Shown: positions 969 through 54,893 of the stretch, piece after piece
Numbering within the stretch: the first letter of the stretch is position 1
Layout of the letters: each line of letters starts with the position of its first letter
From: Argopecten irradians
Lineage: Eukaryota; Mollusca; Bivalvia; Pectinida; Pectinidae
DNA: 64,000 nt
Assembly (NCBI RefSeq): GCF_041381155.1
Contig: NC_091144.1
Span: 20,283,544 to 20,347,543 of the forward strand
Direction: 5' to 3'
Notes under the pieces: generated by a model
Told to the model about the DNA's origin: nothing
What the model saw: the letters and a program-made list of their open reading frames with translations, nothing else
Database searches by the model: none
Made by a program: the position numbers and the translations under genes

Positions 969-2493
969 AACAAGAGATCCCAGAGGGATCTTGGCGCCCA
1001 CCAAAGAATGATCTATATCTGACAAAGGAAAGATGGATCTTTTCTCTACTTTTGACACTTTTTCAAACATACTACATATAAAATTTGAGACATCGCTTCA
1101 GTACCTTTTGAGAAATAGCGGTAACAAACTTCAACTATCAAAATCCAAGATGACTCCTTGGCGGCCATCTTGTTGATCAATCGGTCCCAAATCACAATAT
1201 GCACAACTAGGGCCCTAGGGGAACCTACATGTGAAATTTGAGAAAGATCCATTCAATACTTTCTGAGAAATAGCGATAACAAACTTTGAATATAAAAATC
1301 CAAGATGGCTGCCTGGCAGCAATTTTGTTGACCGATTGGTCCCAAATCACAATATGCACAACTAGGGCCCTAGGGGAACCTACATATGAATTTTGAGACA
1401 GATCCCTTCAGTACTTTCTGAGAAATAGCGATAACAAACTTTGAATAACAAAATCTAAGATGGCTGCCTGGCGGCCATCTTGTTAACCGATCGGTCCCAA
1501 AATGCAATATGCACAACTAGGTCCCTAGGGGAACCTACATATGAAATTTGAGACAGATCCCTTCAGTACTATCTGAGAAATAGCCATAACAAACTTTAAC
1601 TATCGAAATCCAAGATGGCGGCCTGGCGGCCATCTTGTTCACCGATTGGTCTAAAAATGCAATATGCACAACAAGGGCCCTAGGGGAACCTACATATTAA
1701 ATTTGAGAAAGATCCCTTCAGCACTTTTTGAGAAATGGGGATATCAAACCTTAACTATCAAAATCCAAGATGGCCGCCTGGCGGCCATCTTGTTTTTCCT
1801 ATCAGCCTCAAAATCTGTATGGCACAACTAGGGACCAAGGGTAACCTCCATGTGAAGTTTGAACAAAATCCCTTCAGTAGTTCTCAAGAAATATCGATAA
1901 CAAACTTCAACTGCCAAAATCAAAGATGGCTGCCTGGCGGCCATCTGTTTTTTCCGATCAGCCGCAAAATCTGTATGGCACAACTAGGGACCAAGGGTAC
2001 CCTCCATGTGAAGTTTGAACAAAATACCTTCAGGAGTTCTCAAGAAATATCGATAACAATCTTCAACTGCCAAAATCAAAGATGGCTGCCTCTCGGCCAT
2101 CTTGTTTTTTCCGATCAGCCTCGAAATCTTTATGGCACAACTAGGGACCAAGGGTAACCTCCATGTGAAGTTTGAACAAAATCCCTTCAGTAGTTCTCAA
2201 GAAATATCGACAACAAACTTCAACTGCCAAAATCAAAGATGGCTGCCTGGCGGCCATATTGTTTTTCCGAACAGACTCAAAATCTGTATAGCACAAATAT
2301 GGACCAAGGGGACCCTCCATGTGAAGTTTGAACAAAATCCCTGCAGCAGTTTTTAAGAAATAGTGATAACAAACATTGTTTACGGACGGACGACGGACCA
2401 CGGACGACGGACGGCGGACGACGGACCACGGACGCAGGGCGATTAGAATAGCCCACCATCATCATAGCCCACCATCTGATGATGGTGGGCTAA
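969..2493 (-). mobile_element. Non-autonomous element with internal ~155-bp tandem repeats
   Basis: One end is a small hairpin (AGATCCC/GGGATCT). The other is a GACGGACGAC-rich stretch followed by a hairpin, AGCCCACCATC..GATGGTGGGCT. Between them are eight to nine units of ~155 bp, each with a near-palindrome AAGATGGCCGCC..GGCGGCCATCTT. A second copy in inverted orientation lies at 48443-49996 and shares both ends. Terminal hairpins with a central minisatellite resemble Helentron-derived DINE/HINE elements; that family call is inference. Short open frames here are repeat artefacts. It sits in a P5CS intron. Confidence 0.75.
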
Positions 2494-10332: not shown

Positions 10333-11450
10333 CTGCATACTCCAGGGGTTACTATCACTATATCTATACATCCTCGATACTCCAGGGGTTACTATCACTA
10401 TCTTTATACCTCCTCGATACTCCAGGGGTTACTATCACTATCTTTATACCTCCTCGATACTCCAGGGGTTACTATCACTATCTCTATACATCCTCGATAC
10501 TCCAGGGGTTACTATCACTATCTTTATACCTCCTCGATACTCCAGGGGTTACTATCACTATCTCTATACATCCTCGATACTCCAGGGGTTACTATCACTA
10601 TCTTTATACCTCCTCGATACTCCAGGGGTTACTATCACTATCTTTATACCTCCTCGATACTCCAGGGGTAACTATCACTATCTTTATACCTCCTCGATAC
10701 TCCAGGGGTTACTATCACTATCTCTATACATCCTCGATACTCCAGGGGTTACTATCACTATCTTTATACCTCCTCGATACTCCAGGGGTAACTATCACTA
10801 ACTTTACACCTCCTCGATACTCCAGGAGTTACTTTCACTATTTTTATACCTCCTCGATACTCCAGGGGTTATCATTACTAACTTTATACCTCTTCGATAC
10901 TCCATGGGTTACTATCACTATCTTTATACCTCCTCGATACTCCAGGGGTTACTATCACTATCTCTATACACCCTCGATACTCCAGGGGTTATTATCACTA
11001 ACTTTACACATCCTCGATACTCCATGGGTTACTATCACTATCTTTATACCTCCTCTATACTCCATGGGTAACTATCACTATCTTTATACCTCCTCGATAC
11101 TCGAGGGGTTACTATCACTATCTTTATACCTCCTCGATTCTCCAGGGGTTACTATCACTAACTTTATACCTCCTCGATTCTCCAGGGGTTACTATCACTA
11201 TCTTTATACCTCCTCGATTCTCCAGGGGTTACTATCACTAACTTTATACCTCCTCGATACTCCATGGGTTACTATCACTATCTTTATACCTCCTCGATAC
11301 TCCATGGGTTACTATCACTATCTTTATACCTCCTCGATACTCCAGGGGTTACTATCACTATCTTTATACCTCCTCGATACTCCAGGGGTTACTATCACTA
11401 ACTCTATACCTCCTCGATACTCCAGGGGTTACTATCACTATCATTATACA
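10333..11450. repeat. 40-bp minisatellite upstream of P5CS
   Basis: About 28 head-to-tail copies of a 40-bp unit beginning TCCAGGGGTTACTATCACTA, nearly uniform in length with point variation and more divergent toward the right. Because 40 is not a multiple of 3, the long open frames across it cycle through three peptides and are not genes. It starts ~150 bp upstream of the P5CS coding start exon, so it lies in the 5' intron or promoter region. The unit matches the terminal inverted repeat of the MITE at 35960-36262; see the findings. Confidence 0.95.
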
Positions 11451-32633: not shown

Positions 32634-34137
32634 TCTATGTATTTTCGTTTAAATAAAATTATAAGTATGATAATACATTTTATAGTGTATTTTAGTAGTT
32701 TGGTGGCAAGGGAAGTAACTCTAAAATATACTCAAGACGAATACTTGTAAGAGTTGTTTCCCGTGACACCCCGTTTAGGATATTATACAACGGTATGATG
32801 ATATTGCTTAGCAATTTTTAAATGTTCTGTAGGAAGCCATTTTATAATTTATGGGCTACCAACAGGTCTAATCCGTAAACAAACAATAATAAAAAGCGGG
32901 GTTCTTTAGAGAGATAGCCAAGTCAAAAAATAGGGGGAAAAAAAAAAGAAAATATCATGTATACATGGCAATTTTGATAAGCTCGAGACCGCCATATAAT
33001 CTTTACTGGTAACCAGTGCCCATTATTCTCTCTGACTTTTGACATCACAGCAGTTCATCTTTGTTGTGAATGTTCATTCAATGACACTCTAAGACATTAG
33101 TTTATGGAAAATAATCTAGCTGAACTCGGCCCTGCTAAGAGCATGTACAGGAGCTCCCTTCATCAATGTCGCTGTCATAAGAATTCCATCGGAATTCCCG
33201 CGAAGTTACATACGCGATACATTTTAATGCAAGAATTAAATATATATATATATATATAATTTCAATGAATGTTCCTGATTTTCGCGGTTTTTCGTTTAGC
33301 GCTCACTGTACTTATTCTCATCTTTTTTGTCTTGTTTTTGCATGTATTCAATATCTCGTACGTAGTGTAACGGGGGAAGAGGGTGGGGTGGGGTAAAACT
33401 TGATGATGACACATATGACTCTTAAGCCAAAATATGCCACAATAATTACGATTATGAGTTGACATGGGATGTCATTTTTGTGATATTTTTGTCACTCTTG
33501 GTGCCGAAAAAAAACAACAAATTATTTGGTGGCACGATGGATCAATCGGGTTATTTGGCTAAAATAATAAATAATTAGGGGAACTAGCAACACTAATATG
33601 TGTGTAATGAAAATAACATTTTAATGTAACATGCAGTCACAAATAATCATAAAAAATTTAAGTTAAAATCTCAGATTCAGATTCTGATTCTTTTATTTCC
33701 TTGTTTTTAACACATCGGAGAGTTGACATAAACATATACAATATAACAATGCAGACAGTGCTGGACAAACATATAACTACATTTTGCATAGCAAAACAGG
33801 TACATTGTATGATTAATTATGTATATATACCATTTCATAAGACATAAGATCAATGATTTATAATGCACATTTCAAAACAGTTATGAGAAAACGTGTATCT
33901 GTTATCCTCAAAACACGATCCGTCTGGTCACGTTTAAAATAATCAGCTTACGACAGGTTGTAAACTGTCCGAGCTTTTGTCCGGGCGTTAACTAGCCGTG
34001 ACGTAGCATTGACCACATGTATAGGTAATTAAGTAGTATGGATGTGAACACAGAAATGGCCTTTTAACACTAACGTGGCCTTTTATAACTACGACCGGTC
34101 ACGTAATACTTGCTTGGACATTGTCCAAACAAACAAA

Positions 34138-37100
34138 ATGGCGACCCAGATATGGTGGTTGTTGCTGGCCATTATCTTTGACATTTTTAGTCGTAAGTAT
34201 ATTTCAGTTTACTTTCGTTTTAGTGTTTATTGATATCTAAAGAATTTTGATCAACCACATGGTTTGTCTCATATTTGTATGTTTCCTGTCGTAATACACT
34301 GTTAATATAAATGTATTAAATTCGTATATAAAGCTAACTCACTGTTTATATACATGTATGTACACATGCATTAATGACATTTAATTTCTCTCACTGCATT
34401 CAATACTGAAATTACAAATGTATACACATTATTTATAAAACAAACTTATAGCAAGTGTCATTTATGTCATTTAATATACATGTACATGTATATATAAGAA
34501 TTGTTTATTAATGACCCATGCGAATTTGTTTAAGTATTTTTCCTCCTTAGACAGATTTCTAACAGTATAATCAATAAATTTTAGCTGGCACATAAAATAT
34601 ACGTTTAAAATGATGAATCAGAAATCTATTTGTTCGTGTATAAAAGTATTCTATTTAGGTCTCTAACAACTTTGACTTCCATTCCCATTGACCTACGAAA
34701 TACACTTATGATATTTTTACACTGACAGCGAAGTAGATATAAGTGTACTTGCACAACATAAACAATATATTTTCTGCAAATTTCAAGAATAATAATTATT
34801 AATGATCTTACTATTTAAATACCCATCAATCAATCATTTAAATTAGGTAAATATTTGAATGTCAAATGTATGTTAATTGAATGAATACATGAGAACATTT
34901 TTTGTTAATTGTGACGACTATGGATTATTGTTTTCATGTACATGTAAATAATATTTTTCTCAGTTTGCGAGAGTACAAATAACATAAATTGAAAACATCA
35001 TTGTCAAACAAGTAAAAACTGACATGCAAAGTGAGAATTTCAGTAAGTTGCAATTTTCAGATGAGGAATTAATATACAATGCCGTTCAGTCATTATATGT
35101 TACAAATTATCTCCGGCGGGTACATTTAGGTATCCGTTGACACGTCATTTTGTGGCCGGTCAAGTTATAGACATTGACACAGTATGACCTTGACACAGTA
35201 CGACCTTGACACAGTATGACATATATATATATATATATATATAACGAGAAAAAATGTATATAGAGTCTATGATCTAACACCGTTTCTCTGGTTTGTTTAA
35301 AGTAACCATGACGGACGTGTGTTGCTATGGCTACCAATATTATATGTCTTTGGTTTGGTTATTACCTAAATACATTTGTGATGCTACATGTATGTTGCAG
35401 CACCGCCGATGTCCTCAGCCGAGGATTCCTCATTACGTGTTTCGGCCCCTTACTCGGTACACTCCCAGGGTGGGGGTCCACAGTGATGATCAGTCACTGC
35501 GCGTCGGTGGTGGGTGTCCAGCTATACTGGTGTCCTTCTACATCCACACCCAGCATGAAGATCGTTCTACTGCTGCCTTAGCTATCCTCTGTACTGCTTT
35601 CCTTCCTGTCCGACAACCCTAATGCACATAGCATTCTCCACACAGACAGTGCAGGGAGCCTCTATATCCAACCTCAACAGGGTAGTTTCATGTATGCCAG
35701 TCATGCTCCCTGCATTCTGTCAGCATTGTTTTGTACACTTTGTCCTCTTCCTTTCACGTGCTTCACTGCACTTTTCCTCCCATGGGAATCTCAGTTTGAT
35801 AATGACGATTATCTTTGTTCCTGGTTACCATAGAACCATATCCGGTCTGAGGTTGGTGGGAACAATAATCAGAAAAAATAATCTCTGGTTGAGATCTACT
35901 TCCAACCTTCAGTCCCCTGCTTTCACAAACCTAATCTGCGTATGCTTGGACCTCAGCATCCTCGATACTCTAGGGGTTCCTATCACTTACGATCTCTACA
36001 CCCCTGGACGATCTCATAGTGAAATTGAAGGCAGCTCAGCGGAAAACATTTGACCAATCACAGAATAGCAAAGATTTCCTTTGAAGACTACAGAGAGAGC
36101 GACGCCTAACATCAAAGCCACACAGTCAACCACAGTGTACCGTTATACACCTCTTTTGATGTACATCAAATGACTAAATTACCTGTTCTATTCTGTTGCC
36201 TCCAGTTTTACTATGAGATTGTCCAGGGATGTAGATATCATAAGTGATCGGAACCTCTGGACGGGGCCTTGGATGACTGGACCTGACGTTCTTTCTCCAA
36301 AACATCAGCCAACTCCTTTAGGACTTGGTTATGGTGCAATGCATATCTCCGTGTGATAAGGCCACAGTCTGGTGTTTCTGCAAGGTCCAATATATGGAAA
36401 TTTGCTGGTGTTGGTAGCACATCATACACAGATCGGAGGGAAAACTACAGTTGGAATCGCGGGTACTTCCAGATTTCTGTCTAGGATAGAACACGTGATT
36501 CTGTGTTCCACCTTGTCCAGGCCCCTGAACACCCAGTTCTATTGCTTTGGTCTGTCTTCTTTCTTCTTCTACTTCTTATCTCCTTCTGTACCAATGATCT
36601 TCTCTCTGTGACATCAGCTTTCTTCCAGAGAGTATGTTTTGATGTTCCTAAGTCCTGCCTCTCCACTGCGGCTGTTCCCACAATATCTTTGTGTCGCACA
36701 CCGGCTCTCCCTTTTTACAATAACCAAGGCGGACGTGTGTTGCTATGGCTACCATTATTATATTTCTCTGATTCGTTTACAATAACCAAGGCGGACGTGT
36801 GTTGCTATGGCTATCGTTATCATATTTTTTTATGATTCGTTTATAGTAACAAAGGCGGACGTGTGTTGGTATGGCTACCATTATCATATTTCTCTTGTTT
36901 GTTTACAGTAAATAAGGCGGACGTGTGTTGCTATGGCTATCGTTATCATATTTTTTATGATTCGTTTAGAGTAACAAAGGCGGACGTGTGTTGGTATGGC
37001 TACCATTATCATATTTCTCTTGTTTGTTTACAGTAAATAAGGCGGACGTGTGTTGCTATTGCTATCATTATTATATTTCTCTGTTAACAGTAACTAAGGC

Positions 37101-40100
37101 GGACGTGTGTTACTATGGCTACCATCATTATATTTTTCTGTTTACAGTTACCAAGGCGGACGTGTGTTAAAATGGCTACCATTATTATATTTGTCTGTTT
37201 ACAGTTACCAAGGCGGACGTGTGTTAAAATGGCTACCATTATTATATTTCTCTGTTTACAGTAATAAAGGTGGACGTGTGTTACTATGGCTACCATCATT
37301 ATATTTCTCTAGTTGGTTTATAGCAACCAAGGCGGACTTGTGTTGCTATGGCTACCATTATTACATTTCTCTGTTTGTTTACATTAACCAAGGCCGACGT
37401 GTGTTACTATGGCTATCATCATTATATTTCTCTATTTGTTTACAGTTACCTAGGCGGACGTGTGTTACTATGGCTACCATTATTATATTTCTCTGTTTGT
37501 TTACAGTAACCAAGGCGGACGTTTGTTACTATGGTTACTACTACAGTTATTCTATCTCCCACTACTACTGTGACACTGGTTGCTGTGGATACTACTATAG
37601 CCGGATTTGTTGTGACTAGTAAGTATTTCATTCAAAACAACTACTGTTAATATAATCATCTGATCATTGAATACTTTATCGAAAAATCTTTCTGATGAAA
37701 TGTATGAGTTATATTTCATGTTTTGCTTGAACTTTCCAGATTAGAAAGAAATAACTATCATGGTCGGAGACCCACCATTCTGCTGTTTACGTTTGTGATA
37801 AAGGATATAGAGCAGTGTATCGTGGGTTTTCGACGATGTTCAACCACTAAAATGATATTTTCTATAGAGACTAGAATATATCAAAATACTTACAGAGGTT
37901 AGACTACGATTAGTATATGTGTACTATGAAGATATCTGTGTCACCATAATATGGTTGTTATCATGTCGGGGGCTTATCTCTTTTTGTAAGAAATCATTGT
38001 TAGATGGTAGAATCACATAATTATCATCTGTCTTATTAGAGCACGTACAGCTAATTAAAATGATTTTCTCTCTTTTCTTTTCAGTACGAATACCGGGCAG
38101 ATCGTAGGATATGTTTTCGGTGGTATGCTAGTGATCGGGTTTATAGGGGTCGTCGTGTTTTTATGTTTGATAAAAAAGAATCAACGTCGGGGAACTGTGA
38201 TCCGTCCTAGTCCTACCAATACCAACACAGTCCATGTGGGTACGTATAGTAATGTTCACACAACACAGTCCATGTGGGTACGTATAGTAATGTTCACACA
38301 ACACAGTCCATGTGGGTACGTATAGTAATGTTCACACAACACAGTCCATGTGGGTACGTATAGTAATGTTCACACAACACAGTCCATGTGGGTACGTATA
38401 GTAATGTTCACACAACACAGTCCATGTGGGTACGTATAGTAATGTTCACACAACACAGTCCATGTGGGTACGTATAGTAATGTTCACACAACACAGTCCA
38501 TGTGGGTACGTATGGTAATGTTCACACAACACAGTCCATGTGGGTACGTATAGTAATGTTCACACAACACAGTCCATGTGGGTACGTATAGTAATGTTCA
38601 CACAACACAGTCCATGTGGGTACGTATAGTAATGTTCACACAACACAGTCCATGTGGGTACGTATAGTAATGTTCACACAACACAGTCCATGTGGGTACG
38701 TATAGTAATGTTCACACAACACATGGTCCATGTGGTACGTATAGTAATGTTCACACAACACAGTCCATGTGGGTACGTATAGTAATGTTCACACAACACA
38801 GTCCATGTGGGTACGTATAGTAATGTTCACACAACACAGTCCATGTGGGTACGTATAGTAATGTTCACACAACACAGTCCATGTGGGTACGTATAGTAAT
38901 GTTCACACAACACAGTCCATGTGGGTATACGTACGTATAGTAATGTTCACACAACACAGTCCATGTGGGTACGTATAGTTATGTTCTCACAACACAGTCC
39001 ATGTGGGTACGTATAGTAATGTTCACACAACACAGTCCATGTGGGTACGTACAGTAATGTTCACACAACACAGTCCATGTGGGTACGTATAGTAATGTTC
39101 ACACAACACAGTCCATGTGGGTACGTATAGTAATGTTCACACAACACAGTCCATGTGGGTACGTATAGTAATGTTCACACAACACAGTCCATGTGGGTAC
39201 GTATAGTAATGTTCACACAACACAGTCCATGTGGGTACGTATAGTAATGTTCACACAACACAGTCCATGTGGGTACGTATAGTAATGTTCACACAACACA
39301 GTCCATGTGGGTACGTATAGTAATGTTCACACAACACAGTCCATGTGGGTACGTATAGTAATGTTCACACAACACAGTCCATGTGGGTACGTATAGTAAT
39401 GTTCACACAACACAGTCCATGTGGGTACGTATAGTAATGTTCACACAACACAGTCCATGTGGGTACGTATAGTAATGTTCACACAACACAGTCCATGTGG
39501 GTACGTATAGTAATGTTCACACAACACAGTCCATGTGGGTACGTATAGTAATGTTCACACAACACAGTCCATGTGGGTACGTATAGTAATGTTCACACAA
39601 CACAGTCCATGTGGGTACGTATAGTAATGTTCACACAACACAGTCCATGTGGGTACGTATAGTAATGTTCACACAACACAGTCCATGTGGGTACGTATAG
39701 TAATGTTCACACAACACAGTCCATGTGGGTACGTACAGTAATGTTCACACAACACAGTCCATGTGGGTACGTATAGTAATGTTCACACAACACAGTCCAT
39801 GTGGGTACGTATAGTAATGTTCACACAACACAGTCCATGTGGGTACGTATAGTAATGTTCACACAACACAGTCCATGTGGGTACGTACAGTAATGTTCAC
39901 ACAACACAGTCCATGTGGGTACGTATAGTAATGTTCACACAACACAGTCCAATGTGGGTACGTACAGTAATGTTCACACAACACAGTCCATGTGGGTACG
40001 TACAGTAATGTTCACACAACACAGTCCATGTGGGTACGTATAGTAATGTTCACACAACACAGTCCATGTGGGTACGTATAGTAATGTTCACACAACACAG

Positions 40101-43039
40101 TCCATGTGGGTACGTACAGTAATGTTCACACAACACAGTCCATGTGGGTACGTATAGTAATGTTCACACAACACAGTCCATGTGGGTACGTATAGTAATG
40201 TTCACACACAACACAGTCCATGTGGGGTACGTATAGTAATGTTCACACAACACAGTCCATGTGGGTACGTACAGTAATGTTCACACAACACAGTCCATGT
40301 GGGTACGTATAGTAATGTTCACACAACACAGTCCATGTGGGTACGTATAGTAATGTTCACACAACACAGTCCATGTGGGTACGTATAGTAATGTTCACAC
40401 AACACAGTCCATGTGGGTACGTACAGTAATGTTCACACAACACAGTCCATGTGGGTACGTACATAGTAATGTTCACACAACACAGTCCATGTGGGTACGT
40501 ATAGTAATGTTCACACAACACAGTCCATGTGGGTACGTATAGTAATGTTCACACAACACAGTCCATGTGGGTACGTACAGTAATGTTCACACAACACAGT
40601 CCATGTGGGTACGTACAGTAATGTTCACACAACACAGTCCATGTGGGTACGTATAGTAATGTTCACACAACACAGTCCATGTGGGTACGTACAGTAATGT
40701 TCACACAACACAGTCCATGTGGGTACGTATAGTAATGTTCACACAACACAGTCCATGTGGGTACGTATAGTAATGTTCACACAACACAGTCCATGTGGGT
40801 ACGTATAGTAATGTTCACACAACACAGTCCATGTGGGTACGTACAGTAATGTTCACACAACACAGTCCATGTGGGTACGTATAGTAATGTTCACACAACA
40901 CAGTCCATGTGGGTACGTATAGTAATGTTCACACAACACAGTCCATGTGGGTACGTACAGTAATGTTCACACAACACAGTCCATGTGGGTACGTACAGTA
41001 ATGTTCACACAACACAGTCCATGTGGGTACGTATAGTAATGTTCACACAACACAGTCCATGTGGGTACGTATAGTAATGTTCACACAACACAGTCCATGT
41101 GGGTACGTATAGTAATGTTCACACAACACAGTCCATGTGGGTACGTACAGTAATGTTCACACAACACAGTCCATGTGGGTACGTACAGTAATGTTCACAC
41201 AACACAGTCCATGTGGGTACGTATAGTAATGTTCACACAACACAGTCCATGTGGGTACGTATAGTAATGTTCACACAACACAGTCCATGTGGGTACGTAT
41301 AGTAATGTTCACACAACACAGTCCATGTGGGTACGTAAGTAATGTTCACACAACACAGTCCATGTGGGTACGTATAGTAATGTTCACACAACACAGTCCA
41401 TGTGGGTACGTATAGTAATGTTCACACAACACAGTCCATGTGGGTACGTATAGTAATGTTCACACAACACAGTCCATGTAGGTACGTATAGTAATGTTCA
41501 CACAACACAGTCCATGTGGGTACGTATAGTAATGTTCACACAACACAGTCCATGTGGGTACGTATAGTAATGTTCACACAACACAGTCCATGTGGGTACG
41601 TATAGTAATGTTCACACAACACAGTCCATGTGGGTACGTATAGTAATGTTCACACAACACAGTCCATGTGGGTACGTATAGTAATGTTCACACAACACAG
41701 TCCATGTGGGTACGTATAGTAATGTTCACACAACACAGTCCATGTGGGTACGTATAGTAATGTTCACACAACACAGTCCATGTGGGTACGTATAGTAATG
41801 TTCACACAACACACAAACACAGTCCATGTGGGTACGTATAGTAATGTTCACACAACACAGTCCATGTGGGTACGTACAGTAATGTTCACACAACACAGTC
41901 CATGTGGGTACGTACAGTAATGTTCACACAACACAGTCCATGTGGGTACGTATAGTAATGTTCACACAACACAGTCCATGTGGGTACGTATAGTAATGTT
42001 CACACAACACAGTCCATGTGGGTACGTATAGTAATGTTCACATCGTGTATACACAACACAAGTCCATGTGGGTACGTATAGTAATGTTCACACAACACAG
42101 TCCATGTGGGTACGTATAGTAATGTTCACACAACACAGTCCATGTGGGTACGTATAGTAATGTTCACACAACACAGTCCATGTGGGTACGTATAGTAATG
42201 TTCACACAACACAGTCCATGTGGGTACGTATAGTAATGTTCACACAACACAGTCCATGTGGGTACGTATAGTAATGTTCACACAACACAGTCCATGTGGG
42301 TACGTATAGTAATGTTCACACAACACAGTCCATGTGGGTACGTATAGTAATGTTCACATGTTTTTTCCTAAATCATTGGCCGTAGTGCCCGAGAAGAATC
42401 GTCATGGCTTAGTGATGTCGTTATTAGACGTTCCATTTTCATTAGAACAAGTTTGATTGTAACAAAGGTACGTGATCTTTTGTTAGAGCAACAATAGTAA
42501 TAAAGACGTGACTAGGCGGAAATAACCCCCCAACATACATGTAATACCGAAAAAGTTCAAATCAATACTATATTAATAAGAATAGAATACGAGGACTTCG
42601 TATGTGAGACAATCATTTATGTTTTTTTTCCATAGGAAAATGTTTCAGATATGTTAAATTCACTGTATAAATCAAATTGGTGACCACTTCACCAGGCTGA
42701 TTTTCCGTCTGAAGGCTTTTTGGCGTATTCAGAAATGATACAATAATACAATCCGGTATAATATCTAACGGTTATGGTGGGACTGTATAGAGACTTTGTC
42801 TAATTGAAGTACAGAACTATCCACGTCTTTGAATATAATATTATCAATTTTATTTTTCAGCTACAGTTAACCAGATGCAGCCTCCACCGTATGGTCAACC
42901 GCAACCGTACGGTCAACCTTATGGTCAACCACAATCTTACGCACTTCCACTTAGTAACCCAGCATATCCTCCGCCACAATCTGACCTCCCCCCTCCTCCA
43001 GCTTACACCGCCCCGTCACACCCACCGCCTTCTTACTAG
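34138..43039 (+). CDS. CYYR1-like membrane protein, gene B, with arrayed splice sites
   Basis: Coding exons 34138-34192, 37507-37618, 38085-38239 and 42861-43039, phases 1-2-1, give 166 residues. The leader is MATQIWWLLLAIIFDIFS. The Cys region is C-x14-C-x3-CC-x7-CC and Tyr-rich (CYYGYYYSYS, CCGYYYSRICC). The helix is about residues 62-85 and is followed by KKNQRRG. The tail has YGQP repeats, PPPYGQ and a Pro-rich end, PSHPPPSY. This fits the CYYR1/Shisa-like group; the cellular role is not shown here. The exon 3 donor (GTGG|GTACGTATAG) is the first of ~108 copies in the 38-bp array. The exon 2 acceptor is the last of ~14 copies of an acceptor-bearing repeat. An AATAAA near 43609 could end the 3' UTR; 43620-44380 holds nothing I recognise. 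Confidence 0.87.
35390..36700 (-). pseudogene. Degraded 3' part of an RLE-type LINE ORF
   Basis: Minus-strand peptides, in several frames, match the C-terminal part of non-LTR retrotransposons with a restriction-like endonuclease (R2-like group). In order: GAWTRWNTE, YDVLPTPANFHILDLAETPD, ALHHNQVLKELADVLEKE, NLRPDMVLW with a basic/IIK..FPWEE stretch (the PD...E endonuclease core) and an RKAVQRIAKAAVERSSCWVW tail. No reverse transcriptase region is present, so this is a 5'-truncated, decayed copy. It lies in intron 1 of gene B, between the isolated first copy of the exon 2 acceptor repeat (35295-35365) and the rest of that array, and is itself split by a MITE. Confidence 0.65.
35960..36262. 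mobile_element. MITE with ~70-bp inverted ends, inside the LINE remnant
   Basis: Left end (AGGGGTTCCTATCACTTACG..CCCCTGGACGATCTCATAGT) and right end (reading back as AGAGGTTCCGATCACTTATG..CCCTGGACAATCTCATAGT) are inverted copies of each other. The core has 'gaccaatcacagaata' and 'gtaccgttata', as at 11480-11580. Its outer ~40 bp is the ancestral unit of the 10.3-11.45 kb minisatellite. Confidence 0.8.
36714..37506 (+). repeat. Tandem array of the gene B exon 2 acceptor and 5' exon
   Basis: About 13 contiguous units of 58-63 bp, plus one isolated unit at 35295-35365. Each has a pyrimidine-rich 'ctgtttgtttacag', then TAACCAAGGCGGACGTGTGT and 'tatggctacc'. The real exon 2 begins at 37507 with the same acceptor and TAACCAAGGCGGACG. 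Units read as TKADVCYYGYHYYI-like peptides, so some carry usable coding sequence. Others differ in length by non-multiples of three. Confidence 0.92.
38229..42359 (+). repeat. 38-bp satellite of the gene B exon 3 donor (~108 units)
   Basis: The unit reads CAGTCCATGTGG|GTACGTATAG, then TAATGTTCACACAACA; period 38 bp over 4.1 kb with very few variants (mainly GTACGTATAG vs GTACGTACAG, and scattered small indels). The first unit overlaps the last 11 codon bases of exon 3 and its donor. Read-through from exon 3 meets a stop within three units. It fills almost all of intron 3. Confidence 0.97.
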
Positions 43040-44385
43040 AGCGTCAACAGAGCCTCACATTCTAAAGAAGAGGGAATTAAACTGATGGCTAAGACATTTA
43101 ACATTTGACAGCGTCTGATAGGAAATTATTAATGAGATTGACATCCGTGGATTCATCGTCGATGCTTGCTGGACAGAGGACATCATCTGAAAGAGAATTC
43201 TCATCGATCGACACTCAAAAGCACAAATCATCTCTCAAGAAAAGAAAGACAAAATATTGGTAAAAACATTCACGTGTAGAACGTCCGTTTACGTAGCGCA
43301 CATTTAGACATTGAAACATTGGGACATTCGTAAATGAAATAGTTTGACGAGAGAAATTATGACGATTTTTATTTTTATGATAGAAAAAGCTTCTGGCCTA
43401 AGGAGAGTGATATGACAGACCGATTGACACTGCCAGACACGTTGGTTAGACAATTAAACTATCATATCCATGGTTTGGAATTACAAGCAGTTAGGTAAAA
43501 TTCCATGGCAACCCATCACCTTCCCGAACTGCCGTTGGCTTGCCTACTATCATACGCACAAGTTGTTTTTATTTTGTTGTATACTTTGTTACCATGTTAA
43601 TTCATTTGTCAATAAACAGTATTTTTTAATGTTGTATTTTACATTTGATTTATTGAAGCCACGTTTACACCGGATTGTAAAATCTGGACGGAAGTACAGT
43701 GCGATATACCGTTTTCATGGGGAGATAGGAAGTGTTGTTTTTGTCATGTGACCGTGAAATAATTAAGGCATAACTACAACTTAACCCGGAAAGTAAAACA
43801 ATTTTTTCTTTTCTCAAATATGTTTATAAGTCATTAGAAGTCAACTGTTAGTAAAACTTTTTTTATCCAAATATAGAAAATACGGATCAATCTCTGGTCA
43901 ATTCTATGTCAATATTGGGAAAATCTAGGTCAAACAGCTACATGTATTAAGAAAGATAATTGAGTAACAATAATACCGAAAATCATCCTCCACTCTTTAG
44001 GGAATACTCACATGCAGCATCCACAAAGTATATTCAAAAACACTGAACATAGCTGATTTCATATCGCAATGCCAAAATAAGCATTTACTATTGATAAAAT
44101 ATTATACTCCGTAAAACTTCCCCATAGTATTCATGTTGCCGAACCTGTTGGAGATATGCTTAAGGGAGACAAATAATGTCTGATGTTACTGTGTAAAGAA
44201 GGATGATAAAGGATATATATATATATACAAAATATATGGGGGATAACACTCTGGAGATCATTGTTAATTCTATGTGGAGCTTTCAGCAGACACTGGATTC
44301 GTTATTGTATTATACATTCTAACACAATAGATGATAATTCGTAATATTCTGATTCAAAATTATGTAAAAACCCAAACAAATAATG

Positions 44386-45659: not shown

Positions 45660-46357
45660 AAAATATATTTATTGTGTTCCCTCACAATAACATTGTGAGG
45701 CCACACAATACTATTGTGTTACCTCACAATCTTATTGTGATGCCACACAATAATTATTGTGAGGAAACACAATATAATTGTGAGGGAACCCTCACAATAA
45801 TATTGTGTTCCCTCACAGTAATCATTGTGCTCCCTCACAATGATTATTGTGTGGCCTCACAATAAGATTGTGTTCCCTCACAATAATATTGTGTGGCCTC
45901 ACAATAAGATTGTGTTCCCTCACAATAATTATTGTGTGGCCTCACAATAACATTTTGTGGCCTCACAATAAGATTGTGTTCCCTCACAATAAGATTGTGT
46001 GGCCTCACAATAACATTGTGAGGCCACACAATACTATTGTGTTACCTCACAATCTTATTGTGAGGCCACACAATAATTATTGTGAGGAAACACAATATAA
46101 TTGTGAGGGAACCCTCACAATAATATTGTGTTCCCTCACAGTAATCATTGTGCTCCCTCACAATGATTATTGTGTGGCCTCACAATAAGATTGTGTTCCC
46201 TCACAATAATATTGTGTGGCCTCACAATAAGATTGTGTTCCCTCACAATAATTATTGTGTGGCCTCACAATAATTATTGTGTGGCCTCACAATAAGATTG
46301 TGTTCCCTCACAATAGTATTGTGTGGCCTCACAATGTTATTGTGAGGGAACACAATA
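45660..46357. repeat. Array of 21-bp palindromic CACAAT..ATTGTG units
   Basis: About 33 units of the form CCTCACAATAANATTGTGT with alternating GG/TC linkers, each a near-palindrome. A ~320-bp block recurs (45700-45860 and 46022-46180) as a higher-order duplication. The ends are mutual inverses (AAATATATTTATTGTGTTCC and its reverse complement). The 32-bp sequence TTGGTATTTAGTTTCTCATC..ACCATAG flanks both sides as a direct repeat. Open frames on both strands are repeat artefacts. Confidence 0.93.
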
Positions 46358-46852
46358 AATATATTTTTTGGTATTTAGTTTCTCATCCAGAAACCATAGA
46401 GCACTTCCTTGAACAAATTTTATACTTTCTTATAAAGATGTATCAGACTGTCTACATATTCTTTCTATTGTTTATTAGATAACAAAAACGGCAAAAAAAT
46501 ATTAAATTTTGGAATTCGCTTTATTTATGCATATTTTATATGTTTACCATGCAAACTAAAGCTGCACAATTAGAAAACGTTTTGAAACAGAGATATACTA
46601 AATACTACAAATACAACAACTTAATTTCTCAATTTACAAAAAAAAAAACTACATGTAGTTGGTTATACGAAACTCAGAAATGATATGCCAAATGATGCGA
46701 AAAACAATAAATATCGAAACGTTCCGGTAACTGTTACAAAGCTACTACAATAAAGATAGTGGAGACAATGGAACTGCCCATCCGTGTCAACTGCCCATCT
46801 GTCTGTAACAGCCAGTGGTTATATACAAAAATCCAACTACATGTATATTCGG

Positions 46853-47416: not shown

Positions 47417-50400
47417 ATGGCGTCCCAGTCGGTGTGGCTATTGGTCACCACACTGTTTCAACTTATTTCACGTAAGTGTATTAAACTTTCTGAAAGTTAC
47501 TATCATTGAATCATGATCGATAGTTAAATTGAGAAACCATCAAGCCGAAAGTTTATGTTATATCAATATCAATGTGTCATTTGTGTGAATGATGTATGGC
47601 TACATCGTTTTTTTAGAAATTAAGAAATTATAAATTGCGGCCATTTTCATTTTAAGGTTAACTTTGTGACATTATATGATTCATAACGAGTAGTTTAAAG
47701 GACTGATCGGTTGTAATAAATCAGTTTATGTAAGGATATTATTAAAGAGAAATATCTTAGTAATATAGTACATTTACTAACATATATTTTTGTTGTTGAA
47801 AGAAAACACTAATGAAATTGAAATAAACCTCATCAAATTCACGTAAACAGTTATAATGATAAGATCATGATATCTAATTTTGGTTATATTTTGCTAATTT
47901 TTGAAGGAAAAAAATGGCGTCGCCGTTTGTAACGTCGCTTTGGATTGGCTATTGGCTGAGATAACGGCGTAATGATTTAATAGACGAAAGAGTTCCAAAA
48001 TGAATTTTCAATATTGAAGAGATCATCTTTAGTAAATTGAATAATAAGGATTAATTTGAATAGATCTATGTTATGGAGATTTAATACAAAAATTTGAAGA
48101 ACAGAGCAAGAACAGACATCCTTTATGCTCGAGGAGGAAGTACATTATAACTGAATTAAATCAGCATAAATATTTATCAACTGAGTCGGTTAGTTTTCTA
48201 ACCAGTGTTAATAGATATTCTGTGTTTTCAAAGAGCACGTCACATAAAACATGCATGTAAGGAGTAGAATTTGTTAAGTTATTGCTAAACACTAGAAAAT
48301 ATTGTACGGTTTGATAGAAACATGGCAGAAATACGCTGTTTACAGTAAATTATTTTTGGATTGAGGACCCAATACTACATGTCAGGTATTGCGTGTGTTA
48401 TGTATATATAGTGTATAATTCGCCAATGTTACAGCCATTTTATTTTTAGCCCACCATCATCAGATGGTGGGCTATTCAAATCGCCTTTCGTCCGTGGTCC
48501 GTCGTCCGTCCGTCCGTCCGTCCGTCCGTCCGTCCGTCCGTCCGTCCGTCCGTCCGTCCGTCCGTTAACAATTCTTGTTACCGCTATTTCTCAGAAAGTA
48601 CTGAAGGGATCTTTCTCAAATTTCATATGTTGGTTCCCCTAGGACCCTAGTTGTGCATATTGCATTTTGCGACTGATCGGTCAACAAGATGGCCGACAGG
48701 CGGCCATCTTGGATTTTGATAGTTAAAGTTTGTTACCGCTATTTCTCAAAAAATGCAGAAGGGATCTTTCTCAAATTTCATATGTAGGTTCCCCTAGGAC
48801 CCTAGTAGTGCATATTGCATTTCGGGACCAATCGGTCAACAAGATGGCCGACAGGCGGCCATCTTGGATTTTGATAGTTAAAGGTTGTTACCGCTATTTC
48901 TCAAAAAGTGCTGAAGGGATCTTTCTCAAATTTCATATACAGGTTCCCCCAGGACCCTAGTTGTGCATATTGCATTTTGGGACCAATCAGTCAAGAAGAT
49001 GGCCGACAGGCGGCCATCTTGGATTTTGATAGTTAAAAGTTTGTTAACGCTATTTCTCAAAAAGAACTGAAGGGATCTTTCTCAAATTTCATATGTAGGT
49101 TCACCTAGGACCCTAGTTGTGCATATTGCATTTTGGGACCGATCAGTCAACAAGATGGCCGACAGGCGGCCATCTTGGATTTTGATAGTTTAAGTTTGTT
49201 ACCGCTATTTCTCAAAAAGTACTGAAGAGATCTTTCTCAAATTTCATATATAGGTTCCCTAGGGCCCTAGTTGTGTATGTTGCATTTTGGGACCGATCAG
49301 TCAACAAGATGGCCGACAGGCGGCCATCTTGGATTTTGATAGTTTAAGTTTGTTACCGCTATTTCTCAAAAAGTACTGAAGAGATCTTTCTCAAATTTCA
49401 TATATAGGTTCCCTAGGGCCCTAGTTGTGTATGTTGCATTTTGGGACCGATCGGTGAACAAAATGGCCGACAGGCGGCCATCTTGGATTTTGATAGTTAA
49501 AGTTTGTTACCGCTATTTCTCAAAAAGTACTGAAGGGATCTTTCTCAAATTTCATATGTAGGTTCCCCTAGAACCCTAGTTGTGCATATTGCATTTTGGG
49601 ACCGATCGGTGAACAAGATGACCTACCGACGGCCATCTTGGATTTTGATAGTTAAAGTTTGTTATCGCTATTTCTCAGAAAGTACTGAAGGGATCTTTCT
49701 CAAATTCCAAGCATAGTTTCCCCTTGTACCCTAGTTGTGCATAGTACCTTTAAGGACTGCTCCATAATGCTTTTTGGGACTGATCGGTAAAAAAGATGGC
49801 CAACCAGCCGCCATCTTAGATTTCATTGTTGAAGTTTGTTACCACTTTTTCTTAGAAAGTACTATAGCGATCTGTCTCAAATTTTATATGTAGTGTGTTT
49901 GAAAAAGTTTGAAAAGCAGGGAAAAGATCCTCTTTCCATTGTCAGACATAAATCATTCTTTGGTGGGCGCCAAGATCCCTCTGGGATCTCTTGTTTATTG
50001 TATTGTGATATATATACAATTCGATATTTACGCTATGATTATGGCAATTCTGAAACGATGGTGTTTTTCTACGAGATTCTATGGAATTCTATCTTAAGTT
50101 ACTAATTATGCTCGTTTGATAAGTCGAAAGATATAAGTAAAATATAACGACTCGTTTTTCTTAAACATTAAACTTAATTTCTCACATCGCCATAATATAA
50201 ATCTATTAATCTAGAAGAATGGATAATCAGTTGTTGTGCGATAGGAACATACGATTGGTTAGTTTATTAAGTTCAAAGTCCCATTAACAGTTAGGGTCAT
50301 TTAAGGCCATCATACTCTGTATGAATTCTGTTGGGTGTGTGGATACGACTGTATGTTTTGGGAGACTGCGGTATATTCGCGGTATGTGTTTTAAACAAAT

Positions 50401-53400
50401 CAGTACACTCTAGCTCACGAGTTCGATGTCCACTAGAGACAATTTTGACGTACGCTAATGGTTTGTATACGGTACTGAATCTAAATCTGGTAATATAAAA
50501 CACCTTAAAAGTAGATAGTGTTCCAGCTACCATTGTCAATCCACCCTTTTAGTACGATAAGGGCATTACTTATGGTTACAATAGACACAGTGAAACACCT
50601 TAAGGTGAATAAAACTGCCCATTATTAATCTCACTAGAAATATTATAATAAGACGAATATCAATTCTAGGTCAATCACTATACACCAAGACTTTCGGTAT
50701 ATTACTGTCGATGTATATTGAATGTATTCCATTTCAATACATTTGTAAATACCTTTCTTTCTGATGATTTAGAGTAGTAGGTAAAATTCCACAGAAAAAT
50801 TATCCAACTTCCTGATTTCGCCAAAGCGTTTAAAAGTCATGATTGTGATCTCTGGCACAAGGAAGAAGTATAGGTGTTCATTCGGCTACATGTATCAATG
50901 GAGCCTCAATGCTATTCTATTTTTAGATCAGACGATCTACGTCACTTTATCGAATGTTTATTACTTTTACATGTTTCTTTACGAAATATGTATTCAAAGT
51001 TTTCAGATCATTTCCATCGACATTATAAAAACATCAGAAAGGGACGACTAGATAATTCTTTCACAATTGATATTTTAAAATTTAATGTATTCATTTGAAA
51101 ATGATTTGCTTTTCGTTTTACGAGTTGTTCATAAAACACGATTAAATATGCTAATAAATAACCCAAACAAAGAGAACAAGTGATATCTTTCTATAAAGAA
51201 TATACTGTATGCTAATCCAATTCATGAATAGATCATACATGACCCGTGTATTAAAACGTAAGCTGTATTTTGGCAAGGGTAAGAAAGATAGAGCTACTTT
51301 TTTTTGTGACCGGAGCCAACAATACAGCTTACATTTAATGACACTGACCATGTATACAATATTTTAGCTAAAATATACCAACGTTGTTGCAAATATGTCC
51401 CCCTTTCAATCAATAATTCGCCTCGTCATTCGAGGTCATTCGAATCGGCACACGTGCTGAAATTCTAAAATACAGCTGATTTCCGTCAGTGCCAAATACA
51501 ACAAAAATATATGTGGTAGGTGTTTTCCGACATCAATGCTGGTTACAGGATAAAATGAATTGAAATGGCGAAATAACAGATGTATTATTATCATTTAAAA
51601 TATTATTATTTTCCATACAGTTACGCGTATGTAAAGTACAGGTACTTTATATATTTGAAATCTAACTGGAACACCAGCTCTTTTTCTATTTACGCTAAAA
51701 ATGAATAAATAAAATATTGTAAATATTTAACTTTCAGTTTCCAAGTCCAGTATATGTTACTATGGTTACTCCTACTACTACTCTTACTACAGCAGTTACT
51801 ACTACCGGTCGTACTACTGTGACGGGGGATGTTGTGGCTATTACTACAGTAGATACTGCTGTGACAGGTTTGTATACTGTACATTTACATATTTAAGTGG
51901 TAACCTTATTTTATAAAACTGTTATGACGGACGTTGTGGGTATTACTACAGTCGGTACAGCTATGACAGGTATGTATACTTTATATTTACATATTTTAGT
52001 GGTAACCTTATTTTATAAAACTGTTATGATGGATGTTGCGGGTATTACTACAGTCGAAACTGCTGTGACTGGTTTGTATACTGTATATTTACATATTTTA
52101 GTGGTAACCTTATTTTATAGTACTGTTATTACGGATGTTGTGGGTATTACTACAGTCGATACTGCTGTGACAGGTATATACTGTACATTTACATATCTTA
52201 GTGGTAACCTTATTTTATAATGCTGTTATTACGGATGATGTTAATATTACTACATTCGATACTACTGTGACAGGTTTGTATACTGTGTATTTACGTATTT
52301 TAATAGCAACTTTATATTCTTTACTGTGACGGATGACGGTATGAGTACCACTGCACTTAATCCATATGTGACATGAATCTTTACTGTGAATTTGACTTGT
52401 CAAATAATGCTTCTATATGTATTACAAGTGTCTGGGAGTGAGAAGGCAAGGTAAAGCTATCAAATATCACGAGAATTTGTCTTACGTTGCGTGCGGGAGA
52501 AGGGACACTATAAATCGCGGGTCTTCCGCCAAACCGTAACAGTTGGTAATCCTGCCAAATTATAGTGATACAAATTATATATTGGTTTTATTTAAGGATT
52601 AAAGTCTCTTTCTGGTGGTTCTATCGAAGGATAAAGTTGAGTAGGGTATCGATATTTGGAATGGACCGCTTCGCGGTCCATTCCAAATATCGATACCCTA
52701 CTCAACTTTATCCTTCGATAGAACCACCAGAAAGAGACTTTAATCCTTATATTTACAGTCTTAACTATTATTTTCATAGCTCAAAATTTACCCTTAATAG
52801 TGTTTGTGGCATTTATAAGACTAAAATTGAATTATATCGTTTGGTTCCGACAGGCATTTGGAACAGCCACTCGAAGTGGCGGAAATTCCCGCCAATTTAT
52901 CAATGAACATACAAATAAAATGAGTTCCGTCTGATGAAGCATATATCTGGGGTTTTCCCGGTATGGCCTATAAATCGTTTTATTTACCTGTTGTTAAAAA
53001 CACCATGATGCAAAGCAGTTTGGTTTTAATCTTTTGCTTCGTATGATTACACACGCTTACACAATTCATAACGTGGCAGGATATTTAACGTAGTTGTGAC
53101 GCGGCGTCCGATTCAAACCGCCTGTGTCAAGGAAGTGTGACAAACAGAGAGTTTCTTCAATTTTGTGATCACTTGAGTTCTACTTAATCAGTTCACGTTT
53201 GAAATTTCTTGAAAATACGGATGTTTACATAGTTCCATGTCATTATTTCCGGATTTTGGAGATTCAAATGTATCGGACGTCGTTTCGAGGAACATGTACA
53301 AACACAGGTAGGCCCACTACTGTAAACGTTTACCGCTCTCAAAATGTTAGCTTATATTTATATTGTTGTTTCAAACACTTCAATAAATATTAGAGATATC

Positions 53401-54893
53401 TATTACAAGTATTGTAAAGCTACAATTGTAGGATTCCGTTTCATTGATATTTCGAAACACCCAAACGTACATTGTAAGGCCTACTCTCGCCGATTCACAG
53501 TAGATAACGTACAGGACTTGTCTGTCCCCCGAGATGAACAAAAATGCATTGTCGTGCTAGGTCGTTTTGGTTAAACTTATCCAACTCAAAGACTGATGAT
53601 GTCCTTACATATCTTATCCATTCGCGTACAACCAAAGATGTTAAAAATACAAATAGGATGTAGATCTAGGCTACATGTTGTAGCGAACAACACAGACTCA
53701 CCGACACACAACATGTAAACATTGTGACGTCATCGGAATGTGCAAAACTGTACATTGTACAACATTGTTTATTTATCATACGCACGGAAGCATTGCTCAA
53801 AGAGGTACGGTAGTAACATAAACAATGTAACTTTTCTACATTTGTATTTACACACGTACATGTATATTTGTTCAAACCTATTTTGATACATGTAAGCTTA
53901 CATGTTCATCGAACGTACGTTCGGTACTGAAAACACCAAAAGTTTCTGATTTGGACCACCATAAATTCATCCGCGCGGCTCCAAATTGCGCGTGACATAC
54001 TCAATCTATCGAGAAATAAAGTTGAGTAGCCTTTGGTTGAAATCAACGGGGTTTATACTATCAATTCACCACTGACTGTAAATATTGCAAATTAATGTTA
54101 ATTCATACTTATTGTAACGTCTTACACCCAGCGTCTGAATATGTATCATTGAAAGATTATTTAAAAACAACAATTATCCATGTCGGTTGTGGTTCTCTGT
54201 CTCCAGTACTAGTGTTGGAACTATAGCCGGGGCAGTGATTGGAGGAATCATCGTCATAGCTGTCGTCGCCGTCGTTGTCGTCATCTGCTGTAAAGCCAAG
54301 TTCACAACCAGGCGGCGAACTGGAGTCGTGATAGCAAATCAAAACACAGCTACTACTGTCAGTAAGTCGGAAGTAACAAAAGGAGGAGTGACTATATACT
54401 CAAGTTTGAAAATACGAAGATTGCTCTCTTATATAACCACGTAAAGAGTCTAGCCTTAATGCAAGTTTATATAAAGGCTCATGACTGGAAAAACCAAATA
54501 AACGGCAACAAGATCTAGGTTTATAGAGCTAAAGTGATGAATCTAGAATGAAAACACATACTGTCATTCACATAAAAATTATATAAATGTGCTAGTACAG
54601 TATATAATGGGTTTTGCTAAGAGATTATGACGTAATAGTCTTGTTAAAGAAAATAAGGACGCATCTATGATTACAAAGTTTTGTGATAACATACACTATT
54701 TTTTATTCCAGCTACTGTTTCACAGCCTCCGCCACCTCCGCAACCACAGCCAATGATGCAGCCATACGGACAACCTCCCCCGCCACCATACCAGCAGCCG
54801 GGAATGGCCTACCCCCCTCCACAACAGTACCCTCCCCCTCCACCACCCGGAGGCAATCCAGCCTACCCACCGCCTCCTCCCCCAAAGTACTAG
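47417..54893 (+). CDS. CYYR1-like membrane protein, gene C
   Basis: Coding exons 47417-47471, 51738-51867, 54207-54361 and 54712-54893, phases 1-2-1, give 173 residues. The leader is MASQSVWLLVTTLFQLIS. The Cys/Tyr region begins CYYGYSYYYSYYSSYYYR and continues C-x3-CC-x7-CC (CDGGCCGYYYSRYCC). The helix is about residues 67-90 (GAVIGGIIVIAVVAVVVV) and is followed by KAKFTTRRR. The tail is strongly Pro-rich, with PPPPPYQQ, YPPPQQYPPPPPP and a terminal PKY. Exon 3 is 155 nt, as in B and D. Gene B is the closest relative by eye. The exon 2 donor is the weaker GTTTGT form, and downstream pseudo-donors alternate GTTTGT and GTATGT. Intron 1 holds the inverted 48443-49996 element. Role unknown beyond family resemblance. 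Confidence 0.88.
48443..49996 (+). mobile_element. Non-autonomous element with ~155-bp repeats, copy 2
   Basis: Starts with hairpin AGCCCACCATCATCAGATGG..GGGCT, then a (GTCC)n tract at 48506-48565, eight ~155-bp units with CAAGATGGCCGACAGGCGGC and CATCTTGGATTTTGATAG, and ends at the AGATCCCTCTGGGATCT hairpin. It is the reverse complement of the 969-2493 copy. It lies in intron 1 of gene C. Confidence 0.8.
50490..50665 (+). repeat. Dispersed repeat also found at the right window edge
   Basis: Matches 63829-64000 with few differences in the same orientation (AATATAAAACACCTTAAAA, 'tccagcta', GTGAAACACCTTAAGGTGAA, CTGCCCATTATTAATCTCAC). It is in intron 1 of gene C; the other copy is in an intron of gene E. 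The family is not recognised. Confidence 0.85.
51868..52375 (+). repeat. 102-bp tandem repeat of the gene C exon 2 3' half and donor
   Basis: Donor positions 51868, 51970, 52072, 52174 and 52274 mark five units. Each has TATTACTACAGT and CTGTGACAG, then a GT[TA]TGTATACTG donor-like site and a 'tttacatattttagtggtaa' spacer. The period is 102 bp (34 codons), so frames persist over several units, but in the exon 2 frame the spacer has a stop. The units look like decaying copies of the CCGYYYSRYCCD-coding end of exon 2. Confidence 0.88.
52593..52749. repeat. Perfect 77-bp inverted repeat with a 3-base loop
   Basis: Arms 52593-52669 and 52673-52749 are exact reverse complements around TTC, so both strands give the same peptide frame. 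It lies in intron 2 of gene C. A word from the arm, ATAAAGTTGAGTAG, recurs at about 54015. Perfect identity suggests a very recent origin. Confidence 0.95.

What the first reader, a model, noticed from the sequence alone, without database searches (positions are those of the whole stretch)
38085..42359. A splice donor amplified ~108 times as a 38-bp satellite
The last coding bases of gene B exon 3 and its 5' splice site lie inside the first unit of a 4.1 kb, highly uniform array. Every unit repeats CAGTCCATGTGG|GTACGTATAG, so U1 snRNP meets ~108 near-identical donors before one acceptor at 42861. Each unit adds 38 nt (2 mod 3), so every third donor keeps frame in length, but read-through meets a stop within three units, so distal donors should give truncated or decay-prone mRNA. 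Array length may therefore tune gene output, or the array may act as a U1 sponge. The repetition is seen directly; the regulatory idea is inference.
Basis: partly seen in the sequence, partly recalled or inferred. Interest (0 to 1): 0.85.

Follow-up and report, generated by a model that had tools for sequence, protein, structure and literature searches.

The report
Splice donor multiplied into 38-bp minisatellite
In an unnamed animal genome, the spot where one predicted exon ends and its intron begins has been copied about 108 times in a row, so the splicing machinery would see 108 nearly identical start-of-intron signals; a related human example is known, and this genome shows the same kind of repeat at several other exon edges.

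Summary
A 38-bp array, 108 copies, 97% matches, lies at 38223-42358. Its first unit carries the last 17 coding bases of predicted gene B exon 3 and its 5' splice site (exon end 38239). GTACGTA occurs 108 times. Of donors 1-7 and 10 tested, only donor 1 gives the full-length 166-aa protein. Donor 2 swaps the PPxY tail, donors 3-4 remove it, and donors 5, 6, 7 and 10 put the stop at least 66 nt before the last junction. No RNA was available, so donor use is not shown.

It is not alone. Gene B's exon-2 acceptor lies in another array. Neighbouring paralogs have a 102-bp unit over the exon-2 donor in about 2, 5 and 9 copies. A gene of similar layout on C3 has two donor arrays, one with 74 CAGGTAAG sites.

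Best explanation: a junction-born minisatellite, mostly a passenger, with splicing expected from exon-proximal donors. A minisatellite giving several splice donors is published for human IFI6 (paper not read), so this is a recurrent variant of a known kind. A genome-wide excess of donor arrays is only suggestive: 2768 hits, but one control gave 1534. The rheostat idea is untested.

The parts
34138..34192 (+). gene B exon 1 (start codon, signal-peptide-like by eye, phase-1 end)
   Evidence: ORF joins in frame to exons 2-4; no RNA
36714..37538 (+). 57-62 bp array, 13.6-13.7 copies; 10 TTTA(C/T/G)AG acceptor-like sites; the last is the exon-2 acceptor
   Evidence: TRF; sites listed; of 11 AG-ending acceptor-like sites tried (one of them in the detached unit near 35287), 37507 gives the ordinary full protein and 37324 an extended open one
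35287..35350 (+). detached unit of the acceptor array, about 1.4 kb upstream of it
   Evidence: similarity read by eye
37507..37618 (+). gene B exon 2 (Cys/Tyr-rich: DVCYYGYYYSYSISHYYCDTGCCGYYYSRICCD)
38085..38239 (+). gene B exon 3 (transmembrane segment by eye); last 17 nt lie in array unit 1
38223..42358 (+). 38-bp array, 108 units, consensus unit with GTGG|GTACGTA donor
42861..43039 (+). gene B exon 4 (PPxY tail, stop)
47417..47471 (+). gene C (paralog) exon 1
   Evidence: read by eye; same length as gene B exon 1; no RNA
51738..51867 (+). gene C exon 2, whose 3' part and donor are unit 1 of a 102-bp array
51827..52302 (+). 102-bp array, 4.7 copies, with 5 donor-like sites; only the first gives full-length frame
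   Evidence: TRF; frames
54207..54361 (+). gene C exon 3 (transmembrane by eye)
54712..54893 (+). gene C exon 4 (proline-rich tail)

Best explanation
The array is a minisatellite that arose by tandem duplication of a 38-bp segment spanning gene B's exon 3/intron 3 junction (17 nt exon + 21 nt intron) and then expanded to 108 copies inside the intron by slippage or unequal exchange. The copy joined to the rest of exon 3 stays the working donor because only it gives the full-length protein. The other 107 are decoys that can pair with U1. Splicing most likely uses donor 1, with minor leakage to the next few units; use of a few downstream units is what is reported for human IFI6. Leakage here would yield tail-swapped (donor 2), tail-less (donors 3-4) or decay-prone (donor 5 on) messages. 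The array is mainly a passenger with a modest cost, not a dedicated regulator. SHOWN: array, units, exon frames, predicted proteins, arrays at other predicted junctions. INFERRED: duplication mechanism, which donors are used, NMD, cost.
For: Unit 1 begins in the coding end of exon 3. The TM-exon ends of the related loci read by eye also stop at phase 1 with a donor-like GT, and most have no array, so intron 3 is probably older than the array. Of donors 1-7 and 10, only donor 1 gives full length. The same architecture, with the working site in the outermost unit, recurs: gene B exon-2 acceptor; gene C exon-2 donor, where the first of 5 array donors gives full length; and a gene of similar layout on C3 with 74 CAGGTAAG sites between its TM exon and its PPxY-type tail exon, plus a second donor array of 9 sites on an upstream predicted exon. 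Copy number of the 102-bp unit differs between tandem paralogs: 4.7 in C and 9.2 in E by TRF, about 2 in D by eye, where TRF lists none. That is what slippage or unequal exchange predicts. No Rfam match in 34000-43800 at gathering threshold, and no ORF of 60 aa or more runs through the array on either strand. [quoted passage not shown]
Against: No RNA evidence. GTACGTA in 108/108 units is partly circular, because it was the cutting anchor, and divergence is too low to test selection. With a donor matrix recalled from memory the best site in the unit is CAT|GTGGGT (7.4), five bases upstream of TGG|GTACGT (6.6); I prefer the latter because it keeps the frame to exon 4. The unit core also resembles a MITE terminal repeat and a MITE-derived array on C14, so the donor might be of transposon origin. 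The two related junctions I tested do not align significantly to the unit: L013 junction 245/2000 shuffles as good, gene C junction 190/2000.
Confidence: 0.6

Rival explanations
1. Splicing rheostat: array length or U1 level sets the share of full-length versus tail-less or decaying mRNA, and this is used by the organism.
For: Computed isoform ladder: full length, tail swap, tail-less, then stop at least 66 nt upstream of the last junction. The tail at stake holds PPxY motifs; in human CYYR1 PPxY motifs bind the E3 ligase WWP1 (abstract read). A gene of similar layout has the same kind of array in its TM-to-tail intron.
Against: No RNA, no population data. In gene C the equivalent leakage truncates before the transmembrane segment, which looks like damage rather than control.
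Confidence: 0.17
2. The donor and the unit come from the terminal inverted repeat of an abundant MITE that landed at the exon end; the array is an amplified transposon terminus.
For: Core GTCCATGTGGGTANGTATNG has 522+538 genome hits at up to 2 mismatches, the units of this array and of the C14 array included, versus 18+21 for the reversed pattern. L023 and L024 show it at the end of a MITE-like element; 40 of 40 scored places matched L024's copy, out of 2184 first-look candidates (30 aligned). An array on C14 built from that MITE end matches the gene B unit far above shuffles, 0/2000. The related locus L013 has a MITE copy just downstream of its corresponding donor, seen by eye.
Against: The MITE consensus matches the unit no better than chance (186/2000 and 179/2000 shuffles). 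The C14 match was picked from an 845-Mb search. An 18-bp match elsewhere is expected about 0.5 times for any 38-bp query (my estimate). Gene B's donor fits an ordinary family exon end (by eye).
Confidence: 0.2
3. Donor-bearing minisatellites are a favoured class genome-wide, through a mutational bias at 5' splice sites or through U1-dependent benefit such as protection from premature polyadenylation.
For: Triple CAGGTAAGT: 2768 hits versus 76 reversed, 444 with GT changed to GA, 606 for a same-composition scramble. AGGTAAGT triples 6785 versus 896, although singles are 52563 versus 45462. Acceptor patterns show no excess: 22 versus 154 and 1083 versus 2290. The first 100 listed CAGGTAAGT hits form four arrays with different units within 6.5 Mb of C1.
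Against: Hits per pattern are heavy-tailed; the reversed scramble TGATAGGAC gave 1534, so the donor is only 1.8 times the highest of its seven exact nine-mer comparators. Arrays could not be counted genome-wide because lists stop at 100 hits. Of two AGGTAAGT arrays whose 5' edges I read, one has a candidate exon edge without Pfam or PDB support and one has none.
Confidence: 0.12
4. Assembly artefact or wrong array length.
For: Long uniform arrays are error-prone in assembly (general knowledge).
Against: Unit variants are ordered along the array: the T>C variant is absent from the first 21 units and frequent in the middle. Similar arrays occur at unlinked loci.
Confidence: 0.04
5. U1 sponge: transcribed donors titrate U1 snRNP.
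For: The unit donor can pair with the U1 5' end.
Against: U1 is far more abundant than one pre-mRNA could titrate (recalled, not tested); expression level unknown.
Confidence: 0.02

Closest known systems
Human IFI6 (6-16/G1P3) minisatellite with multiple splice donors (Turri, Cuin and Porter 1995, NAR 23:1854; title seen in reference lists of PMC2572611 and PMC4526556, paper itself not held)
   Same: Minisatellite whose units serve as splice donors; two downstream units reported used (PMC4526556 passage)
   Different: Unrelated gene and unit. Here 108 units of 38 bp, and in the same genome an acceptor array, paralog arrays and two arrays in a gene on C3. Unit and copy number of the IFI6 array are recalled (about 12 bp, some tens of copies), not checked.
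Tandem repeats at exon-intron boundaries of human segmentally duplicated genes (De Grassi and Ciccarelli 2009, PMC2812944; outline and passages read)
   Same: Variable tandem repeats at exon-intron boundaries in recently duplicated paralogs alter splicing; units average 30 bp
   Different: There repeats average 4 copies and 160 bp and are said to form novel introns, with RNA support; here the intron looks older than the array, which is 4.1 kb, and there is no RNA
[quoted passage not shown] described in PMC4974935, passages read)
   Same: Tandem duplication touching splice signals
   Different: That model makes a new intron from an exonic duplicate; here related loci have the same phase-1 intron and the repeat multiplies its donor
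CYYR1-like Cys/Tyr-rich transmembrane proteins with PPxY tails
   Same: Cys/Tyr-rich ectodomain, one TM-like segment, PPxY-type tail (genes B and C, by eye)
   Different: Gene B has no CYYR1 match in Pfam; gene C 21.3 bits against a cut-off of 31

Membership tests
IFI6-type multiple-splice-donor minisatellite | Array overlaps a (here predicted) exon/intron junction and its units carry a donor | tested here: met
IFI6-type multiple-splice-donor minisatellite | More than one unit is used as donor in mRNA | not testable with these tools
   no RNA data on hand
IFI6-type multiple-splice-donor minisatellite | Array length varies between individuals | not testable with these tools
   one assembly only; between paralogs the 102-bp array does vary
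AGGT-type intron gain by tandem duplication | Repeat supplies both splice sites of a new intron absent from relatives | tested here: not met
   phase-1 donor after the TM exon read by eye in related loci without the array; acceptor 42861 lies outside the array
CYYR1 (Pfam PF10873) | Pfam match above gathering score | tested here: not met
   gene B none up to E = 1; gene C 21.3 bits versus 31
MITE-terminus-derived minisatellite | Unit aligns to MITE terminal repeat better than chance | tested here: inconclusive
   consensus not significant, C14 MITE-derived array significant but post-selected

The most novel reading that the evidence does not exclude
This genome carries a recurrent class of minisatellites born at 5' splice sites: exon ends are repeatedly amplified into long intronic arrays of donors. 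In gene B the array acts as a length-tunable switch that trades the PPxY-tailed membrane protein for tail-swapped, tail-less and NMD-targeted forms.
Probability: 0.12. Interest if true: 0.82.

Novelty: new variant of a known kind. Interest (0 to 1): 0.5.

Why it matters
It is a natural experiment on 5' splice-site choice: 108 near-identical donors compete for one acceptor, at regular 38-nt spacing, with a computable read-out for each donor. It directly tests whether exon-proximal or intron-proximal sites win when U1 is not limiting. If junction-born arrays are common in such genomes, they are a little-noticed source of splicing variation and of exon erosion, as in paralog E.

Tried and rejected
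MITE origin: looked decisive after the 1060 core hits, but weakened when the MITE consensus scored no better than shuffles; kept as a rival. Genome-wide donor excess: looked 36-fold against the reversed control; two more control searches gave 444, 606 and 1534 hits, so I call it suggestive only. Selection on the donor within units: no power. Donor strength across arrays in 46 stretches chosen from what I held: 5 of 26 arrays in 220,717 bases reach the matrix cut-off versus 1.52 expected, but three of the five (L086, L087, L088) were fetched because they carry donors and the other two (both L021) came in through the family search; dropping L086-L088 (4 rows) leaves 2 of 22. In that call gene B's own unit stays below the cut-off (7.4). 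Non-coding RNA: no Rfam match in 34000-43800. Coding array: no ORF through it. Candidate exon at the C1:2890660 array: no Pfam or PDB relative. Paper searches: (CC-licensed PMC library only), so I claim nothing about what is not in print beyond them. One search's donor matrix and one search's U1 5' end are recalled, not from a call.

Full report
THE OBSERVATION. TRF finds one 38-bp array at 38223-42358 with 108.0 copies, 97% matches and score 7798. The sequence shows exon 3 of a predicted four-exon gene running straight into unit 1. Joining 34138-34192, 37507-37618, 38085-38239 and 42861-43039 gives one 166-aa frame: a signal-peptide-like start, Cys/Tyr-rich ectodomain, one transmembrane-like segment (these by eye) and a PPxY tail. 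The junction is GTG G|GTACGT, phase 1, with 17 exonic and 21 intronic bases per unit. GTACGTA occurs 108 times. Of the 108 units cut at that motif, 74 are identical to the consensus and 17 share one T>C change in the intronic half. In a whole-genome search the two-unit query found this array and, at 78-80%, an array on C14; only 6 first-look candidates were scored, so other copies are not excluded.

WHAT EACH DONOR WOULD MAKE. splices donors 1-7 and 10 to exon 4. Donor 1: 166 aa, full length. Donor 2: 194 aa, the tail replaced by a frameshifted one with its stop in the last exon. Donor 3: 135 aa, stop 10 nt into the last exon. Donor 4: 135 aa, stop 28 nt before the last junction. Donors 5, 6, 7 and 10: the same 135 aa, stop 66, 104, 142 and 256 nt before the junction. 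By the usual rule of about 50-55 nt (recalled), NMD would start at donor 5. U1 pairing of the unit donor is -8.0 kcal/mol, similar to gene B's other donors (-8.3 and -7.6); 1.6% of 1274 sampled GT sites in the window are as strong (U1 sequence recalled). A recalled donor matrix scores CAT|GTGGGT, five bases upstream, a little higher (7.4 against 6.6), but that site would not keep the frame to exon 4. Which donors are used is not known.

IT RECURS. (i) Gene B's exon-2 acceptor is the last acceptor of a 57-62 bp array (36714-37538, 13.6-13.7 copies). Of 11 AG-ending candidates tried, 37507 gives the ordinary protein and 37324 an extended one. (ii) Gene C, which starts 13 kb downstream of gene B's start (TM exon hit by gene B's at E = 0.03), has a 102-bp array over its exon-2 donor (51827-52302). 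Of 6 donor-like sites tried, 5 of them in the array, only the first gives full length; the others stop before the transmembrane segment. (iii) Paralog D has about two such units by eye (TRF lists none) and a stop codon in exon 2. Paralog E has 9.2 units, and the 3' half of its exon 2 is replaced by array sequence; none of 9 donors tried gives the family protein. (iv) A gene on C3 has a TM exon ending CATCAG|GTAAG, then 74 CAGGTAAG sites over 2.9 kb, then an acceptor and a PPxY-type tail exon; an upstream predicted exon ends in a second donor array with 9 sites. Its kinship with gene B is not established: it came in at E = 1.06 and shares mainly the layout. One search gave 11 hits; I treat 9 as TM exons of this layout and drop L020 and L022. 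A donor array sits at the TM-exon donor in 2 of these 9 loci, gene B and the C3 gene.

ORIGIN OF THE UNIT. Related loci have a phase-1 donor after the TM exon without an array (by eye), so the array probably multiplied an existing donor and did not make the intron. The unit core resembles the terminus of a MITE-like element: 40 of 40 scored places out of 2184 first-look candidates matched the L024 copy. The C14 array is an amplified end of that element, apparently in another gene's intron. Against shuffled units the C14 unit matches strongly (0/2000), the MITE consensus does not (186 and 179 of 2000), and neither do the two related junctions (245 and 190 of 2000). I favour self-origin from the junction but cannot exclude a MITE-supplied donor.

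IS IT A GENOME-WIDE CLASS? Whole-genome pattern counts, both strands, three copies with gaps of 12-42 bases: CAGGTAAGT 2768, its reversed control 76; CAGGAAAGT 444, reversed 8; CAGGATAGT 606, reversed 1534; TTTTGCAGG 22, reversed 154; TTTYNCAGG 1083, reversed 2290. AGGTAAGT triples 6785 versus 896, while single AGGTAAGT is 52563 versus 45462. The donor word is the highest of the eight exact nine-mers, and acceptor words are not raised. But hits are clumped by array and one control reaches 1534, so I rate this as suggestive. The first 100 listed CAGGTAAGT hits fall into four arrays with different units in 6.5 Mb of C1. Of the two AGGTAAGT arrays whose 5' edge I did read, one (C1:2890660) follows a candidate exon and one does not, and that exon has no Pfam or PDB match.

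COMPARISON WITH WHAT IS KNOWN. A minisatellite that gives several splice donors was described for human IFI6 in 1995. I saw its title in two reference lists and a one-line account (two downstream units used, three mRNAs) in PMC4526556; the paper itself is not held. Tandem repeats at exon-intron boundaries in duplicated human genes are described in PMC2812944 (outline and passages). The AGGT duplication model of intron gain (PMC4974935 passages) does not fit, as the intron looks older than the array. Gene B is CYYR1-like in layout but fails the Pfam test; gene C scores 21.3 against 31. In human CYYR1, PPxY motifs bind WWP1 (abstract of PMC11399591), which makes tail loss a plausible functional change.

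VERDICT. Real, correctly described, and not alone in its genome. It is most likely a junction-born minisatellite with leaky-splicing potential, and a striking, recurrent variant of a known kind. The regulatory reading is untested.

Noticed in passing
C3:54872500-54880573 (L085 + L021, minus strand): Gene of similar layout with two donor-spanning arrays, one with 74 CAGGTAAG sites; a cleaner case than gene B because the donors are near-consensus.
   Followed up: partly
window 51827-52302; L083; L084+L014: 102-bp exon-2-donor unit differs in copy number between tandem paralogs C, D and E (4.7, about 2 by eye, 9.2); in E the array has replaced the 3' half of exon 2, and D has a stop codon in exon 2.
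   Followed up: partly
C1:2890660-2897590 (L087, L088): About 7 kb array of a 41-bp unit with AGGTAAGT in many units, following a candidate exon edge.
   Followed up: partly
C14:33244971-33248267 (L009 4972-8268): 39-bp array of 84 copies derived from a MITE-like terminus, apparently in an intron of another gene; units donor-like on what looks like the sense strand.
   Followed up: partly
window 10337-11449 and 35975-36270: A 40-bp array (27.8 copies) resembles, by eye, the end of a dispersed repeat also seen in L024; a copy of that repeat lies in the stretch that separates the detached unit from gene B's acceptor array.
   Followed up: no
window 1092-2374 and 48575-49743; L009 1947-2516: 155-bp tandem array recurring at several places beside GACG/CGTC short repeats, looks like a mobile element carrying its own minisatellite.
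   Followed up: no
window 45670-46358: 21-bp array made of alternating inverted TTGTG/CACAA units, self-complementary by eye.
   Followed up: no
L013 from about 1660: MITE-like copy just downstream of the exon-3 donor in gene B's best-scoring related locus.
   Followed up: no
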